Assembly: GCF_000337095.1 (NCBI RefSeq)
Contig: NZ_AOIV01000009.1
Coordinates: 1 to 38,500 of the forward strand
Length of the DNA: 38,500 nucleotides
Direction of reading: 5' to 3'
Source of the DNA: Halogeometricum pallidum JCM 14848
GTDB lineage: Archaea > Halobacteriota > Halobacteria > Halobacteriales > Haloferacaceae
A model generated the notes under the pieces. That model was not told the origin of the DNA. It did no database searches and saw nothing but the letters and a program-made list of their open reading frames with translations. The position numbers and the translations under genes are program-made. Numbering within the stretch: the stretch's first letter is position 1; every line of letters starts with the position of its first letter. Shown here piece after piece: positions 5,768 to 10,627 of the stretch.

Positions 5768-5804
5768 TCTCTGATGATTTGGAGACTGTGCGTTCGTGAA
5801 TAAT

Positions 5805-5816
5805 CCCCCCGGGGGG
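5805..5816. repeat. Perfect C6G6 palindrome in the divergent promoter region
   Basis: Six C followed by six G form a 12-bp perfect palindrome between the two divergent promoters. It lies 10-20 bases upstream of a T-rich element (5826-5835) of the UbiB-type gene. It could be a protein-binding site or a DNA structural element; no function is shown. Confidence 0.5.
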
Positions 5817-5864
5817 CGGGCGACTCCCTTTTTGCCCTCGCGGTCCCGAGTGGGCGTAACTCGA

Positions 5865-7739
5865 ATGTCCGCCTCCGCTCCGGACGACCCGGCCGACTCC
5901 CCTCCGAGCGACGGCCCAGGCGACGCGAGAGCGTCCCGTTCGGCACTCGACGCCGTTCCCGACTCCGACTCCGGTCCCGACCCGGACCGCCCCTCCGGTG
6001 TCCGCGTGGCGCTCCACTCGCTGTGGCGACTGCTCGTCGTCGTCCGCACCTTCCTCCCCCTGTTCGTCGCCATCGCCCGGGACAGGCGGCGCTTCCTCCT
6101 GTTCGGCCGGTCGCGCCGGACCGACGCGGCGACGCGGACGCGCCGGGCGACCGACCTCCGCGACAGTCTCGTCTCCCTCGGGCCGACGTTCGTCAAACTC
6201 GGGCAGGTGCTCTCCACGCGCCCGGACGCCCTGCCGGCCGAGTACGTCGAGGTGCTCTCCACCCTGCAGGACGAGGTGCCGCCGGACGACTGGGAGACGG
6301 TCCGCCCGCGAATCGAGGAGGAACTCGGTCCCGTCGAGGCGACGTTCGACGAGTTCGACCCCGACCCCATCAGCGGCGCGAGTCTCGGGCAGGTGTACAC
6401 CGCCGTCGCCGACGGCGAACGCGTCGCCGTCAAGGTGTTGCGCCCGGGCATCCGCCGCGTTGTGGAGGCGGACCTGCGCGTCGTCGAGCGGTTGGTCCCG
6501 GTGCTCGTCCGCTTCGCACACCCCGGTCAGCGCTTCACCTTCGAGAACCTCGCCGGGGAGTTCGCCGACACCATCCACGAGGAGATGGATTACGCGCACG
6601 AGGCGGCGATGCTCCGCCGGATTCGGCGGAACTTCGAGGACGACCCGAAGATTCGGGTCCCGGTCGCACACGAGGGATTCTCCACGCGGAACGTGCTCAC
6701 GATGGAGTACGTCGAGGGGGTGAAGATAGACCGCGTGCGGGAACTCGAACGGATGGGCGTCGACCGCGAGGCGGTCGCGCGGCGCCTCGAACGCGCGTAC
6801 ATCGAGATGATGCTCGAACACGGCCTGTTCCACGCCGACCCCCACCCCGGAAACCTCGCGGTTCGGTCCGACGGCACCCTCGTCTTCTACGACTTCGGGA
6901 TGACCGGCCGCATCGACTCGGCGACGCGCGAACACATGTACGAGTTCTACGTCGGCGTCGCCACCGACGACATCGACCGGGTGATAGACGCGTTCGTGGC
7001 GATGGGGGCGCTGGACCCGGCGGCCGACCGGGCGCTGATGCGCGAGGCGTTCTCCGTCGCCATCGATAGACTCGGCGGCGGCGACGTCGACCGGTACCGC
7101 GTCCGGCAGTTGGTCTCGGAGTTCCAGGCGACGCTGTACGATTTCCCCCTCCGCCTGCCGCAGGACCTCGCCCTCGTCGTCCGCGTCTCGACGGTGCTCG
7201 AGGGCGTCTGCCGGACGCTCGCCCCCGAGTTCGATTTCATCGAAGAGGTGACCGAGTACGTCGACGAACGCGGGGTGGACGGCGGCGACGAGGAGGACTC
7301 CTCGGTGAGAGAGCGCGTCGCCCGCGAGTACGCCGAGGACGCGGCCGACCAGTTCCGCGCGGCGACGCGGACGCTCCTGACGGTGCCGCCGAAACTGAGC
7401 CGCGTGCTCGGATTGGTCGAACGGGAGAACGTGCAGGTGAACGTCGTCCTCGCGGGGTCGGAGGCGTTCGAGTCGTTCGCGAAGAAGGTCGTCGCCGGCG
7501 TCCTCCTCGCGGGCAACCTCCTCGCCGTCTCCCTCCTGTTCGCCCTCGAAAACGGGGTGACCGCCGGCGTCGCCGCCCTCGGCGTGCCGCCCCTGCTGGT
7601 GCTCTGCTACGCGGCGTTCCGGCGCGAACGCGGCGTCCGCGTCCGGGGGAACCCGCAGTTCACGAGACAGGGGATGCGCGCCCGGCGCGACGAAAGCGGG
7701 GGCGGAAGCCCGAGCGCCCCGGGCGAAAACGGAGACTGA
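5865..7739 (+). CDS. ABC1/UbiB/AarF family atypical kinase
   Basis: A 624-residue atypical protein-kinase-like protein. The family-specific KxGQ motif is FVKLGQ (109-114), the A-rich nucleotide loop is replaced by ISGASLGQVYTA (169-180), the ion-pair lysine is Lys190 in VAVKVLRPG, and the catalytic and metal motifs are HADPHPGN and YDFGMTG. Two hydrophobic segments close the C-terminus, so it should be membrane-anchored. Bacterial and mitochondrial relatives support quinone (ubiquinone) synthesis; haloarchaea use menaquinone, so a role in isoprenoid quinone or lipid homeostasis is inference. ATG 5865 is preferred to upstream in-frame codons because these overlap the promoter and GC palindrome. 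The protein begins with about 45 disordered acidic/Ser residues. Confidence 0.92.
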   Translation: MSASAPDDPADSPPSDGPGDARASRSALDAVPDSDSGPDPDRPSGVRVALHSLWRLLVVVRTFLPLFVAIARDRRRFLLFGRSRRTDAATRTRRATDLRDSLVSLGPTFVKLGQVLSTRPDALPAEYVEVLSTLQDEVPPDDWETVRPRIEEELGPVEATFDEFDPDPISGASLGQVYTAVADGERVAVKVLRPGIRRVVEADLRVVERLVPVLVRFAHPGQRFTFENLAGEFADTIHEEMDYAHEAAMLRRIRRNFEDDPKIRVPVAHEGFSTRNVLTMEYVEGVKIDRVRELERMGVDREAVARRLERAYIEMMLEHGLFHADPHPGNLAVRSDGTLVFYDFGMTGRIDSATREHMYEFYVGVATDDIDRVIDAFVAMGALDPAADRALMREAFSVAIDRLGGGDVDRYRVRQLVSEFQATLYDFPLRLPQDLALVVRVSTVLEGVCRTLAPEFDFIEEVTEYVDERGVDGGDEEDSSVRERVAREYAEDAADQFRAATRTLLTVPPKLSRVLGLVERENVQVNVVLAGSEAFESFAKKVVAGVLLAGNLLAVSLLFALENGVTAGVAALGVPPLLVLCYAAFRRERGVRVRGNPQFTRQGMRARRDESGGGSPSAPGENGD

Positions 7740-7753
7740 ACGGGGTGAGCGGT

Positions 7754-8158
7754 CTACTCGGCGCCCGCGGCGGCCGTTCCAGTCGGCTCCTCGTCCTCCT
7801 CGACCGCGGCGGGGTCCTCGCCCGCCGGCGGCGAGGCCAACCACTCGTCGGCCCAGTCGCTTATCTCGTCGAAGACGGGGCAGAGCGACCGACCCTTCGA
7901 GGTGAGCGAGTAGTACGTCGCCACCGGGGCGTCCTCCTCCAGTCGCCGGGAGACGAACCCGAGTTCCTGCAGGTCGTCGAGGACGCGCGACAACGTCCGC
8001 GAACTCGACCCGGTGGAGCGCTTCAGTTCGTTGAACCGCTTCTCGCCGTCCTGTAGGTCGTGCAGGACGATGAGCCGCCACTGCGAGCCGATCTGTTGAA
8101 TCGAGTCGATGACGCCGCACGCTTCCTCGCTGTATATCTCTTCGTCTTCCGGGGGCAT
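7754..8158 (-). CDS. HxlR-type winged-helix transcriptional regulator
   Basis: A 134-residue HxlR/DUF24-family repressor or activator. After about ten acidic residues comes the core: CGVIDSIQQIGSQWRLIVLHDL, RFNELKRSTGSSSRTLSRVLDDLQELGFVSR (recognition helix and following strand) and the wing with YYSLTSKGRSL. One Cys (Cys14) precedes the helix-turn-helix at the place where redox-sensing HxlR proteins such as YodB/HypR carry theirs; a second Cys is in the LCPVF segment. A poorly structured Glu/Ala tail follows residue 110. It is divergent from the ring-cleaving dioxygenase gene across 109 bp containing two palindromes, so it most likely controls that pair and itself. The ATG at 8158 is favoured; a GTG three codons upstream is also possible. 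It ends 14 bp from the UbiB-type stop, convergently. Confidence 0.9.
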   Translation of the reverse strand: MPPEDEEIYSEEACGVIDSIQQIGSQWRLIVLHDLQDGEKRFNELKRSTGSSSRTLSRVLDDLQELGFVSRRLEEDAPVATYYSLTSKGRSLCPVFDEISDWADEWLASPPAGEDPAAVEEDEEPTGTAAAGAE

Positions 8159-8177
8159 CGATGTCACCTGGTAGCTC

Positions 8178-8195
8178 GTACGTCCGGGAACGTAC
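8178..8195. promoter_or_regulatory. Candidate operator: GTACGT-N6-ACGTAC inverted repeat
   Basis: Perfect 6-bp arms (8178-8183 and 8190-8195) flank a 6-bp spacer in the divergent region between the HxlR gene and the dioxygenase gene, next to a TATA-like CATATG (8195-8200). Dyad symmetry here fits a dimeric winged-helix regulator. Binding is inferred from position only. Confidence 0.5.
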
Positions 8196-8212
8196 ATATG
8201 GTTTCGGTTCCG

Positions 8213-8221
8213 TACTAAGTA
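8213..8221. promoter_or_regulatory. Second candidate operator: TACT-A-AGTA palindrome
   Basis: A 9-bp odd palindrome, TACTAAGTA, about 47-55 bases ahead of the dioxygenase ATG. From memory, Bacillus YodB, also an HxlR-family regulator, recognises a TACT...AGTA dyad with a longer spacer, so the half-sites are suggestive. It may equally be the TATA region of the dioxygenase gene. Confidence 0.4.
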
Positions 8222-8267
8222 ACAGAGTGAAACTGGCGACGGGCCAGCGTGCGACACCACGAATACC

Positions 8268-9224
8268 ATGAACACCACAGGCATCCACCACGTCACGGCC
8301 GTCGCGGGCGACCCAGCCGAGAACGTGCGGTTCTACGCCGACGTGCTCGGCCTCCGACTCGTCAAGCGCACCGTGAACTTCGACGACACGCGCACCTACC
8401 ACCTCTACTTCGGCGACGGGACGGGGTCGCCCGGCACCGCGATGACGTTCTTCCCGTTCGGCGAGGGCCGACCCGGGCGCCCCGGCCGCGGGCAGGCCGT
8501 CGCCACGGCGTTCGTCGTCCCCGAGGGAAGCCTCGACTACTGGCGCGACAGGCTCGAATCGCACGACGTGACCGTCGGCGAGGAGACAGAGCGGTTCGGC
8601 GCGGGCGTCCTCCCCTTCGAGGACCGGGACGGCCAACCGCTCGAACTGGTCGAGGGCGAGACGGACGTGGAACCGTGGGCTGACGGGCCCGTCCCCGAGG
8701 CGCGCGCCGTCCGCGGCTTCCACGGCGTCACGCTCCAGTCGGCGGACCCCGGCGCGACGGGTCGAGTCCTCGAACTCCTCGGGTTCGAGCGAACCGACGA
8801 AGCGGGCGAACGCGTCCGGTACGTCGCCGACGGCGACCGAGCGACGGTCGTCGACCTCCTGACGCGCGAGTCGCCGCGGGGACGACCCGGCGTCGGCACC
8901 GTCCACCACGTCGCCTTCCGCGCGCCCGACGCGGAGACGCAGGCGGAGTGGCGCGAGCGACTGTCCGAGGCGGGCCAGAACGTCACGCCGCGGAAGGACA
9001 GACAGTACTTCCAGTCCATCTACTTCCGCGAACCCGGCGGCGTCCTCTTCGAGGTGGCGACGGACGGCCCCGGGTTCACCGCCGACGAGTCCGTCGAGTC
9101 GCTCGGGTCGGAACTGAAACTCCCGTCGTGGCTCGAGGCGGACCGCGAGGAGATAACGGCGCATCTGCCCCCACTCGACGGCGCCGCCGAGGCCGAAGTC
9201 GGGGCTAGTGAGGTGTCCGACTGA
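8268..9224 (+). CDS. Ring-cleaving dioxygenase-like VOC protein (MhqO/PcpA-like)
   Basis: A 318-residue protein built of two vicinal-oxygen-chelate (glyoxalase/bleomycin-resistance) modules, the architecture of extradiol and hydroquinone ring-cleaving dioxygenases. Module one begins MNTTGIHHVTAVAGD with His8; module two contains GFHGVTLQS (150-158), HHVAF (213-217) and GGVLFEVA (257-264), which supply a 2-His-1-carboxylate type iron site (probably His8 or His214 with Glu262). Length and the GLRLVKRTVNFDD segment match the MhqO/YfiE-type family. The expected activity is oxidative opening of a hydroquinone or catechol-like ring; the substrate is unknown. Its TGA overlaps the ATG of the downstream hydrolase (TGATG), implying translational coupling. 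Confidence 0.88.
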   Translation: MNTTGIHHVTAVAGDPAENVRFYADVLGLRLVKRTVNFDDTRTYHLYFGDGTGSPGTAMTFFPFGEGRPGRPGRGQAVATAFVVPEGSLDYWRDRLESHDVTVGEETERFGAGVLPFEDRDGQPLELVEGETDVEPWADGPVPEARAVRGFHGVTLQSADPGATGRVLELLGFERTDEAGERVRYVADGDRATVVDLLTRESPRGRPGVGTVHHVAFRAPDAETQAEWRERLSEAGQNVTPRKDRQYFQSIYFREPGGVLFEVATDGPGFTADESVESLGSELKLPSWLEADREEITAHLPPLDGAAEAEVGASEVSD

Positions 9225-9877
9225 TGGCCGCGAGCGACGACCCCCACGCGGACCAGCCGATACTGACCGCCGGCGCGGACCCGGAGGCGGCGAGCGTCGC
9301 CGTCGTCCTCGTCCACGGTCGCGGCGCGACGGCGCGCGGGATGCTCCAACTCGCCGACGAGTTCGACCGCGGGGGCGTCCACTACGTCGCCCCGCAGGCG
9401 CAGCGAGGGACGTGGTACCCCAACTCGTTCATGGCCCCCGCGGAGTCGAACGACCCGCACTACGACTCGGCGGTGGCGCACGTCGACCGCGCGGTCGCGC
9501 AGGCGCGCGAGACGACGGGGCTCCCGGACGAGAAACTCGCGTTCGTCGGCTTCTCGCAGGGGGCGTGTCTGCTCTCCTCCTACGTGGCGACCCACCCGGC
9601 GCGCTACGGCGGCCTCGTCCTCCTCTCGGGCGGGTTCGTCGGCCCCGAGGGGACCGACTTCCGCTTCGAGGGCTCGCTCGACGGGACGCCGGTCATGCTC
9701 GGCGTGAGCGACGACGACCCGCACATCCCGCTCTCGCGCGCCGAGGAGACGGTCGCGGAACTCGAACGGATGGGCGCGGACGTGCGCTTCGACGTGTACG
9801 AGGGCAGCGAACACCGCGTCTTCCCCGAGGAGGTCGAGTACGCGCGGGACCTGCTCGACTCGCTCTCGGAGGCGTAG
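9224..9877 (+). CDS. MhqD-like carboxylesterase/phospholipase (alpha/beta hydrolase)
   Basis: A 217-residue alpha/beta hydrolase of the phospholipase/carboxylesterase family. The nucleophile is Ser111 in GFSQGA, the acid is in GVSDDDPHIP (161-169, probably Asp165) and the His is His197 in GSEHRVFP. The oxyanion region is VLVHGRGA (28-35). Bacillus MhqD is a relative encoded next to a ring-cleaving dioxygenase in quinone-stress operons, and here the gene is fused by a start/stop overlap to just such a dioxygenase. I infer a joint role in detoxifying aromatic or quinone electrophiles, the hydrolase acting on the cleavage product or a thiol adduct. No signal peptide is seen; cytoplasmic. Confidence 0.88.
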   Translation: MAASDDPHADQPILTAGADPEAASVAVVLVHGRGATARGMLQLADEFDRGGVHYVAPQAQRGTWYPNSFMAPAESNDPHYDSAVAHVDRAVAQARETTGLPDEKLAFVGFSQGACLLSSYVATHPARYGGLVLLSGGFVGPEGTDFRFEGSLDGTPVMLGVSDDDPHIPLSRAEETVAELERMGADVRFDVYEGSEHRVFPEEVEYARDLLDSLSEA

Positions 9878-9970: not shown

Positions 9971-10627
9971 ATGCTCGTTCTCGGTGACGCTCACGCCGAC
10001 GACCCCGCACGCAGAGACGCCCTCCTCGCCGCGTACCGGGAGGTGGACCCCGACGCCGCCCTCCAGGTCGGCGACTTGTTCCACTACGACCTCCCCGCGC
10101 CGACGTGGTTCGTCGCGGGTAACAACGAGGATTTCGACGTGATAGACGCCCTCCGCCGCGGCGATGCGGCGCTGACGGACGCCGGGCGGCCGCACCTCCT
10201 GGCCAGCACCGCCGCCGACGTCGAGGGCCTCCGGGTGGGCGGCCTCTCGGGCAACTTCGCCCCGACGCAGTACGGCAAGTCGCGCGCGGACCTCGCGGGC
10301 GACCGGCGCCGGCACTTCGTCCGCGCGGAGGTCGAACGCGCGGCGTCGCTGACCGACGTGGACGTCTTCCTCGCGCACCAACCGCCGCGGGGCCTCCTCC
10401 GCGTCGCCGGCGGCCGCGACCCCGGCGTCGGGGCCGTCGACAAGATACTGCGGGCGGTCGAACCGGACCTCCTCCTCGTCGGTCACAACCACCGCCACGC
10501 CGAGGCGACCATCGAGGGCGTCCGCGTCGTCAGCCTCGCGCCGACGTGGGAGGCGTACTACACCCTCGACCCCGCGACGCTCGAACTCGAACGGCACGCC
10601 GTCGAGAGGGACGCGACGGAACCGTAG
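9971..10627 (+). CDS. Small calcineurin-like metallophosphoesterase
   Basis: A 218-residue MJ0936/YfcE-like phosphoesterase. The dinuclear-metal motifs are all present: DAHAD near the N-terminus (MLVLGDAHAD; Ala-Asp in place of the more usual Gly after His), GDLFHYD, GNNEDFD, AHQPP and VGHNHRHAE near 169-177. It should hydrolyse phosphodiesters or phosphomonoesters with Mn2+ or similar in the cytoplasm; the physiological substrate cannot be predicted. It is convergent with the polyphosphate kinase gene (83-bp gap) and stands alone after a 93-bp spacer. Confidence 0.87.
   Translation: MLVLGDAHADDPARRDALLAAYREVDPDAALQVGDLFHYDLPAPTWFVAGNNEDFDVIDALRRGDAALTDAGRPHLLASTAADVEGLRVGGLSGNFAPTQYGKSRADLAGDRRRHFVRAEVERAASLTDVDVFLAHQPPRGLLRVAGGRDPGVGAVDKILRAVEPDLLLVGHNHRHAEATIEGVRVVSLAPTWEAYYTLDPATLELERHAVERDATEP

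What the first reader, a model, noticed from the sequence alone, without database searches (positions are those of the whole stretch)
7754..9877. Quinone/aromatic-stress-like locus: HxlR regulator, ring-cleaving dioxygenase, MhqD-like hydrolase
In Bacillus, MhqO (dioxygenase) and MhqD (hydrolase) are induced by quinones, and HxlR/DUF24 regulators (CatR, YodB) sense such electrophiles. Here an HxlR gene is divergent from an overlapping dioxygenase-hydrolase pair in an archaeon, with a Cys ahead of the helix-turn-helix. The UbiB-type kinase next door (convergent) is quinone-linked in other organisms. This may be an archaeal electrophile-detoxification unit.
Basis: partly seen in the sequence, partly recalled or inferred. 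Interest (0 to 1): 0.55.

Follow-up and report, generated by a model that had tools for sequence, protein, structure and literature searches.

The report
Haloarchaeal thiol-switch quinone-detoxification locus
This salt-loving archaeon carries a small gene unit in which a cysteine-bearing switch protein probably turns on two enzymes that break down toxic hydroquinone-type compounds; nearly all its relatives carry the same switch, usually beside similar detoxification genes, although such switches were thought hard to find in archaea.

Summary
The three genes are real: an HxlR/DUF24 regulator (7754-8158, minus), divergent from an MhqO-family ring-cleaving dioxygenase (8268-9224) that overlaps an Abhydrolase_2 hydrolase (9224-9877). 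The regulator's orthologue occurs in 137 of 145 Halobacteria genomes. Cys14 is invariant in 136 of 136 aligned copies, and 118 of 136 have a second cysteine at one of three C-terminal positions. In 91 of 136 genomes (34 of 53 genera) genes of the bacterial quinone/oxidant-response kind lie within 3.5 kb: DoxX, VOC dioxygenase, this hydrolase, flavin reductase, MsrB. A conserved palindromic promoter element precedes the regulator in 103 of 136; the window's copy is at 8184-8223. Haloferax mediterranei has HxlR, VOC, dioxygenase, hydrolase and DoxX together with the same element. Deinococcus fuses the dioxygenase and hydrolase. Best explanation: a YodB/QsrR-like thiol switch represses itself and the enzyme pair, and electrophiles such as quinones relieve it. 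Not supported: the UbiB neighbour (2 of 216 loci) and orthology of the hydrolase with MhqD. No induction, binding or enzyme data exist for this locus. New variant of a known kind.

The parts
7754..8158 (-). HxlR/DUF24 (YodB/HypR/QsrR-like) regulator, 134 aa, with Cys14 and Cys93
   Evidence: PF01638 E 1.2e-21; best PDB YodB 5hs7 E 1.8e-13 and HypR (YybR) 4a5m E 4.5e-13, whose N-terminal Cys falls on Cys14; Cys14 in 136 of 136 orthologues
8184..8223 (-). Conserved HxlR promoter element: GTTACTTAGTACGGAACCGAAACC followed by a TATA-like CATATG; the relatives' consensus is GTTACCTGGTTCG-N4-CGAACC followed by a TATA-like box
   Evidence: Matrix score 40.8; >12 in 103 of 136 upstream regions, best of 680 shuffles 8.9; dyad GTTC-N6-GAAC in 62 of 136 against 0.2 expected; letters checked. 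The matrix was trained on these regions, the window's included
8163..8175 (-). Second palindrome-like site GCTACCAGGTGAC just before the HxlR start codon
   Evidence: Best match to GTNACCNGGTNAC 17 nt before the start (9 of 10); >=7 of 10 at exactly that place in 59 of 136 genomes, median at other places 1
8268..9224 (+). MhqO/PcpA-family ring-cleaving dioxygenase, 318 aa; predicted metal ligands His8, His214, Glu262
   Evidence: 3oaj MhqO E 7.8e-86; 4huz PcpA E 2.2e-51, ligand columns aligned
9224..9877 (+). Abhydrolase_2 carboxylesterase-like hydrolase, 217 aa; predicted triad Ser111, Asp165, His197; translationally coupled (TGATG) to the dioxygenase
   Evidence: PF02230 E 5.8e-18; 4h0c E 1e-44; fused to the dioxygenase in Deinococcus ficus

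Best explanation
The HxlR protein is an archaeal YodB/QsrR-type thiol switch. As a reduced dimer it binds the palindromic element between the two divergent start codons (8184-8223), which overlaps the place where TFB/TBP would sit on its own promoter, and so limits its own expression and that of the divergent dioxygenase-hydrolase operon. Quinones or other thiol-reactive electrophiles modify Cys14, by alkylation or by a disulfide to a C-terminal cysteine (Cys93 here) of the dimer partner. The regulator then leaves the DNA. The Fe(II) dioxygenase opens the reduced (hydroquinone or thiol-adduct) ring, and the coupled hydrolase cleaves the ring-opened product. Shown here: gene identities, conservation of the cysteines, promoter element and neighbourhood, and conserved active-site residues. 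Inferred: repression as the sign of control, the identity of the binding protein, the inducer, and the substrate.
For: Cys14 in 136 of 136 orthologues, aligned with the N-terminal Cys of HypR. A C-terminal Cys at 93, 101 or 110 in 118 of 136, exactly one in 104, against a mean of 63 (maximum 83) in 2000 column shuffles; these lie in the region of helix a5, and helices a1 and a5 form the dimerization domain of this fold (PMC7835342 passage). Neighbours of the YodB/CatR/MhqR kind within 3.5 kb in 91 of 136 genomes and 34 of 53 genera, directly divergent in 86 of 136 and 31 of 53. DoxX near HxlR in 59 of 136 against about 1% expected from 287 DoxX genes in 59 genomes (my sum). Promoter element in 103 of 136. 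H. mediterranei pHME505: a 73%-identical HxlR divergent from VOC, dioxygenase, hydrolase and DoxX, with GTTCG-N4-CGAAC in between. Dioxygenase aligns with MhqO and at every PcpA ligand. Deinococcus fusion of both enzymes beside a MarR regulator, WrbA quinone reductase and maleylacetate reductase. The own genome shows no close maleylacetate reductase (best 30%), which favours detoxification over growth on aromatics.
Against: No induction, binding or enzyme result exists for this locus. The regulator is more widespread (137 of 145) than the P0001-type dioxygenase (108 of 145), and 45 of 136 loci lack all six neighbour families, as do 11 of 12 named Haloferax loci. In 18 of 18 fetched dioxygenase loci that are not beside HxlR the element scores below 0, so a wider regulon is not supported; and of 14 that are beside or near HxlR only 5 score high within 300 bases of the dioxygenase start. 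The window's own half-sites are imperfect. 18 of 136 orthologues have no C-terminal Cys at the three positions, so a two-Cys disulfide cannot be universal. Family members can also be activators (HypR, HxlR; PMC6943732, PMC7835342, passages).
Confidence: 0.6

Rival explanations
1. Same unit, but the regulator senses oxidants (HOCl, H2O2, disulfide stress) in general; the dioxygenase and hydrolase are one branch of an oxidant regulon, and quinones are not the natural signal.
For: MsrB lies within 3.5 kb of HxlR in 8 of 136 genomes (one genus) and is divergent from it in Halobacterium salinarum DSM 3754 (L254). A ring-cleaving dioxygenase of H. volcanii, HVO_RS03935, rises under H2O2 (log2 0.98 RNA, 1.44 ribosome occupancy; table passage of PMC12482152). 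HypR was modified at Cys14 and responds to HOCl (PMC6943732 passage).
Against: The commonest partners (DoxX, VOC dioxygenase, hydrolase, flavin reductase) resemble quinone/catechol genes rather than peroxide genes. I could not show that HVO_RS03935 is the orthologue.
Confidence: 0.22
2. Aromatic catabolism: the dioxygenase and hydrolase serve growth on hydroquinone-type or plant-derived aromatics, and HxlR is a substrate-responsive regulator.
For: Pseudarthrobacter chlorophenolicus and Deinococcus ficus carry relatives beside maleylacetate reductase.
Against: No catabolic genes flank the unit; best match to maleylacetate reductase in the own genome is 30% over part of the protein. The regulator is nearly universal in the class, unlike a catabolic pathway.
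Confidence: 0.1
3. Formaldehyde/aldehyde sensor of the B. subtilis HxlR type, which works through a Cys-Lys crosslink at Cys+2.
For: Same Pfam family and an N-terminal Cys at the same place.
Against: HxlR needs Cys11 and Lys13 (PMC7835342 passages); the residue at Cys+2 here is V, I, T or L in 136 of 136 and never Lys. No hxlAB genes were seen nearby.
Confidence: 0.03
4. HxlR regulates only itself, and the divergent enzymes are constitutive or controlled elsewhere; the co-location is a byproduct of gene shuffling.
For: The promoter element is kept as often when no detoxification gene is near (36 of 45) as when one is (67 of 91); absent upstream of 18 of 18 unlinked dioxygenases.
Against: Different detoxification families recur in the same divergent place in 31 of 53 genera.
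Confidence: 0.15

Closest known systems
YodB / CatR / QsrR (MarR/DUF24) regulons of B. subtilis and S. aureus, including catDE
   Same: DUF24/HxlR regulator with an N-terminal redox Cys; a C-terminal Cys as in YodB; control (here inferred) of VOC ring-cleaving dioxygenases and, in relatives, DoxX and flavin enzymes (that CatD is a DoxX protein is recalled)
   Different: Archaeal TATA/BRE promoter; operator GTTACCTGGTTCG-N4-CGAACC; the window's enzyme pair is of the MhqO plus hydrolase kind rather than CatE; no azoreductase or nitroreductase seen at the locus
MhqR regulon (mhqRED, mhqNOP, mhqED)
   Same: Dioxygenase plus Abhydrolase_2 hydrolase pair; dioxygenase closest to MhqO
   Different: Regulator is HxlR-type, not MarR-type MhqR; hydrolase only 19% identical over 109 aa to an MhqD-like protein
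PcpA/LinE hydroquinone 1,2-dioxygenase pathways
   Same: All three metal ligands and the neighbouring His, Thr, Arg and Tyr positions align
   Different: No maleylacetate reductase nearby; substrate unknown
OxsR (TrmB), MsvR and SurR (ArsR), the archaeal thiol-switch regulators
   Same: Winged-helix protein with a redox cysteine in archaea
   Different: Different families; here DUF24/HxlR, linked to ring-cleavage enzymes

Membership tests
MarR/DUF24 (HxlR) regulators | HxlR winged-helix domain above the curated cut-off | tested here: met
   PF01638 76.8 bits, cut-off 20.8
YodB/QsrR/HypR thiol-switch subgroup | Conserved N-terminal Cys in helix a1 | tested here: met
   Cys14 in 136 of 136; aligned with the HypR Cys
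YodB/QsrR/HypR thiol-switch subgroup | Second, C-terminal Cys for an intersubunit disulfide (YodB type) | tested here: inconclusive
   Present at 93, 101 or 110 in 118 of 136; missing in 18
YodB/QsrR/HypR thiol-switch subgroup | DNA binding changed by quinone or oxidant through that Cys | not testable with these tools
   Needs gel shift with wild type and C14S
B. subtilis HxlR (formaldehyde) | Lys at Cys+2 | tested here: not met
   V/I/T/L in 136 of 136
MhqO/PcpA ring-cleaving dioxygenases | Two-module VOC protein with His-His-Glu metal site | tested here: met
   His8, His214, Glu262 align with His11, His227, Glu276 of 4huz; that these are the PcpA ligands is recalled
MhqD hydrolases | Orthology with MhqD of mhqRED/mhqED | tested here: not met
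   19% over 109 aa, E 6e-4, to the hydrolase of a Staphylococcus mhqRED-like plasmid operon; B. subtilis MhqD itself was not on hand
MhqR regulon | MarR-type MhqR regulator | tested here: not met
   Regulator is PF01638; the MarR_2 Pfam match is below its cut-off
catDE-type operon | DoxX plus VOC dioxygenase next to a DUF24 regulator | tested here: not met
   No DoxX in the window's unit; but DoxX lies within 3.5 kb of the orthologue in 59 of 136 genomes

The most novel reading that the evidence does not exclude
A YodB/QsrR-type thiol switch is part of the near-core genome of the class Halobacteria. It acts through a palindromic operator overlapping the archaeal BRE/TATA region and controls an interchangeable set of ring-cleavage and redox enzymes (DoxX, VOC dioxygenases, a dedicated hydrolase, flavin reductase, MsrB). 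Its resolving cysteine moves among three C-terminal positions while Cys14 stays fixed. It would be the first known quinone-responsive regulatory system of archaea.
Probability: 0.45. Interest if true: 0.75.

Novelty: new variant of a known kind. Interest (0 to 1): 0.58.

Why it matters
[quoted passage not shown] Here an orthologous family with the diagnostic cysteine is found in 137 of 145 Halobacteria genomes, mostly beside quinone- or oxidant-type enzymes. That makes a concrete, quickly testable claim in genetically tractable organisms (Haloferax mediterranei carries the complete island) about how aerobic, quinone-using archaea cope with electrophiles. It also assigns a probable role to several families usually left as 'VOC family protein', 'DoxX family protein' or 'dienelactone hydrolase family protein'.

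Tried and rejected
Wider regulon by motif: the element was not found upstream of the two dioxygenase paralogues of the own genome (C20, C37) or of the 16 other fetched dioxygenases that are not beside HxlR, 18 of 18 in all. A degenerate form of the pattern in the own genome gave 236 matches against 4 for the reversed pattern; most look like ordinary coding words (GTCACCGAGTACG...), so I judged the search uninformative.

UbiB/ABC1 kinase as part of the unit: rejected, found next to the regulator only here and in Halogeometricum limi, 2 of 216 loci.

MhqD orthology of the hydrolase: rejected at the level tested. Formaldehyde-type sensing: rejected. First gene calling from base composition missed the hydrolase because of a longer spurious ORF and was redone. 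My HMM labels VOC1 and Diox2 were built from one linked cluster and do not separate cleanly, so I also give pooled and BLAST-based counts. Neighbour HMMs were trained on the same loci in which they were then counted; Pfam confirmed one representative of each of the five main clusters (DoxX, VOC, flavin reductase, hydrolase, MsrB), and a sixth cluster representative had no Pfam match.

Literature: nine of ten searches used; no listed paper describes an HxlR/DUF24 quinone regulator in haloarchaea, but the library holds open-licence papers only, and I saw listings, abstract openings and passages, not whole texts. Structure prediction was not run.

Full report
Observation. The three genes are at the stated places. 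HxlR starts at 8158, which leaves 109 bases between the divergent start codons. The dioxygenase stop and hydrolase start share one base. Pfam gives HxlR (PF01638), two Glyoxalase/VOC stretches (PF00903) and Abhydrolase_2 (PF02230). The NCBIfam matches of these three are all far below their cut-offs, so none is a named equivalog. Best solved relatives are YodB and HypR for the regulator, B. subtilis MhqO for the dioxygenase and an esterase, 4h0c, for the hydrolase.

Enzymes. Against PcpA (4huz) the dioxygenase aligns at all three metal-ligand positions (His8/His11, His214/His227, Glu262/Glu276) and at His7, Thr10, His213, Arg245 and Tyr252, which I recall as second-sphere residues of PcpA. This points to p-hydroquinone-type rather than catechol-type substrates, as an inference. 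The hydrolase keeps GFSQG (Ser111), Asp165 and His197. The pair belongs together: of the 150 dioxygenase places listed, 63 have a listed hydrolase within 1 kb, in 57 genomes if the same strand is required (both lists were cut at about 150 rows). In Deinococcus ficus both are one 557-aa protein (48% and 44% identity to the two window proteins), next to a MarR regulator, WrbA and maleylacetate reductase. A Staphylococcus epidermidis plasmid has MarR, dioxygenase, VOC and hydrolase in a row, but its hydrolase is only remotely related, its first dioxygenase 38% identical. Pseudarthrobacter chlorophenolicus has a relative of the pair (dioxygenase 34%) between a FAD monooxygenase and maleylacetate reductase.

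The own genome has two dioxygenase paralogues: C20 (55%), followed by a hydrolase paralogue (40%), and C37 (51%), without one. The regulator's next relatives there are only 35% and 33% identical.

Regulator across the class. Of 145 Halobacteria genomes, 142 have a match at E 1e-12, of which 137 are at 6e-34 or better and the other five (G001, G002, G007, G014, G093) are weak and probably not orthologous; 3 have none. In a phylum-wide sample of 196, matches outside the class are much weaker (best E 1.9e-21, against 3.3e-53 or better in the 27 matching class genomes). Loci of 136 of the 137 were fetched. Cys14 is invariant in all 136. Further cysteines sit at 93 (64), 101 (32) or 110 (36); 104 of 136 have exactly one of these, 18 none, 14 two. 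Column shuffles give a mean of 63 with exactly one, maximum 83 of 2000, but they ignore relatedness. The Lys needed by B. subtilis HxlR for formaldehyde sensing is absent in 136 of 136.

Neighbourhood. Clustering of predicted proteins in the 136 loci showed DoxX, a single-domain VOC protein, a flavin reductase and the hydrolase as recurrent divergent neighbours (Pfam check of representatives). HMM counts within 3.5 kb: DoxX 59 genomes/21 genera, VOC1 32/9, Diox2 19/12 (pooled VOC 50 genomes), hydrolase 16/7, flavin reductase 28/11, MsrB 8/1; any of them 91 of 136 genomes and 34 of 53 genera; directly divergent within 500 bp 86 of 136 and 31 of 53. For scale, 59 genomes hold 287 DoxX genes (my sum), so about 1% of random positions would have one within 3.5 kb. 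In 80 named loci, 60 have at least one of these families. The exact three-gene order is in 8 of 136 and 17 of 80, the latter including Halogeometricum limi, six Halobellus and two Halorussus loci; HxlR with the hydrolase first is in 8 of 136 and 10 of 80. Against this, 45 of 136 loci have none of the families, and 11 of 12 named Haloferax loci are bare. Haloferax mediterranei, which was not among those 12, is different: on pHME505 an HxlR with 73% identity stands divergent from VOC, dioxygenase, hydrolase and DoxX, and its intergenic DNA carries GTTACTTAGTTCG-TACC-CGAACC before a TATA-like box.

Promoter element. Upstream regions of the 136 regulators are enriched for a GTTC-N6-GAAC dyad (62 against 0.2 expected from shuffles; not all copies lie at the same place). 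A matrix built from them places GTTACCTGGTTCG-N4-CGAACC directly before a TATA-like box in 103 of 136; the best of 680 shuffles scored 8.9 against a threshold of 12. The window scores 40.8 with imperfect half-sites. A second palindrome-like site lies 17 nt before the start codon. The element is kept whether or not detoxification genes are near (67 of 91, 36 of 45), as an autoregulated promoter would be. It was not found before 18 of 18 unlinked dioxygenases, and only 5 of 14 linked ones score high in the same scan; it could not be used genome-wide. What binds it is inferred.

Mechanism and rivals. The most likely reading is a DUF24 thiol switch that represses itself and the divergent enzymes until an electrophile modifies Cys14. 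In bacteria YodB and CatR respond through Cys6 and Cys7, QsrR by alkylation of Cys5 (PMC6798810 and PMC6943732, passages), and S. aureus mhqRED and B. subtilis catDE are induced by methylhydroquinone and catechol (PMC6798810, PMC6212828, passages). A general oxidant signal is the main rival: MsrB neighbours, and a ring-cleaving dioxygenase of H. volcanii induced by H2O2 (PMC12482152, table passage; its orthology to this gene was not established). A catabolic role is less likely because no close maleylacetate reductase was found in the own genome.

Novelty. [quoted passage not shown] The parts are of known families; the archaeal setting, the class-wide spread, the operator and the HxlR plus MhqO-type plus hydrolase combination are new as far as these searches show. 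I file it as a new variant of a known kind.

Noticed in passing
L334:1972-3645 (Deinococcus ficus pDFI1): The dioxygenase and hydrolase are fused into one 557-aa protein annotated only as 'VOC family protein', beside a MarR regulator, WrbA and maleylacetate reductase; two other Deinococcus plasmids (D. wulumuqiensis, D. deserti) show the same label under the hydrolase match.
   Followed up: partly
L337:1876-5366 (Haloferax mediterranei pHME505): Complete island: HxlR, VOC, dioxygenase, hydrolase, DoxX; a good laboratory target.
   Followed up: yes
L254 (Halobacterium salinarum DSM 3754): The HxlR orthologue is divergent from an MsrB-like gene; three other Halobacterium loci (L247, L248, L258) have the hydrolase followed by MsrB.
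   Followed up: partly
HxlR positions 93, 101, 110 in 136 orthologues: The C-terminal cysteine occupies one of three alternative positions and is mostly single; a possible case of a resolving cysteine that moves while the sensing cysteine stays fixed.
   Followed up: partly
G017:C1:2794517-2794837 and G022:C1:571118-571417: Extra HxlR paralogues (54% and 61% identity) also have a DoxX gene about 0.9 kb away in the divergent direction.
   Followed up: no
window 9971-10627: A metallophosphoesterase-like gene follows the hydrolase; a similar gene follows it in G122 (cluster 124), so it may travel with the unit in near relatives.
   Followed up: no
window 5796-7739: UbiB/ABC1-type kinase convergent with HxlR; linked only in this genome and Halogeometricum limi.
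   Followed up: yes
PMC13104607 table (passage): DoxX family protein Hlac_0953 is listed with a value of 12.6 in a Fe(III)-reduction proteome table; whether it is the DoxX beside HxlR was not checked.
   Followed up: no
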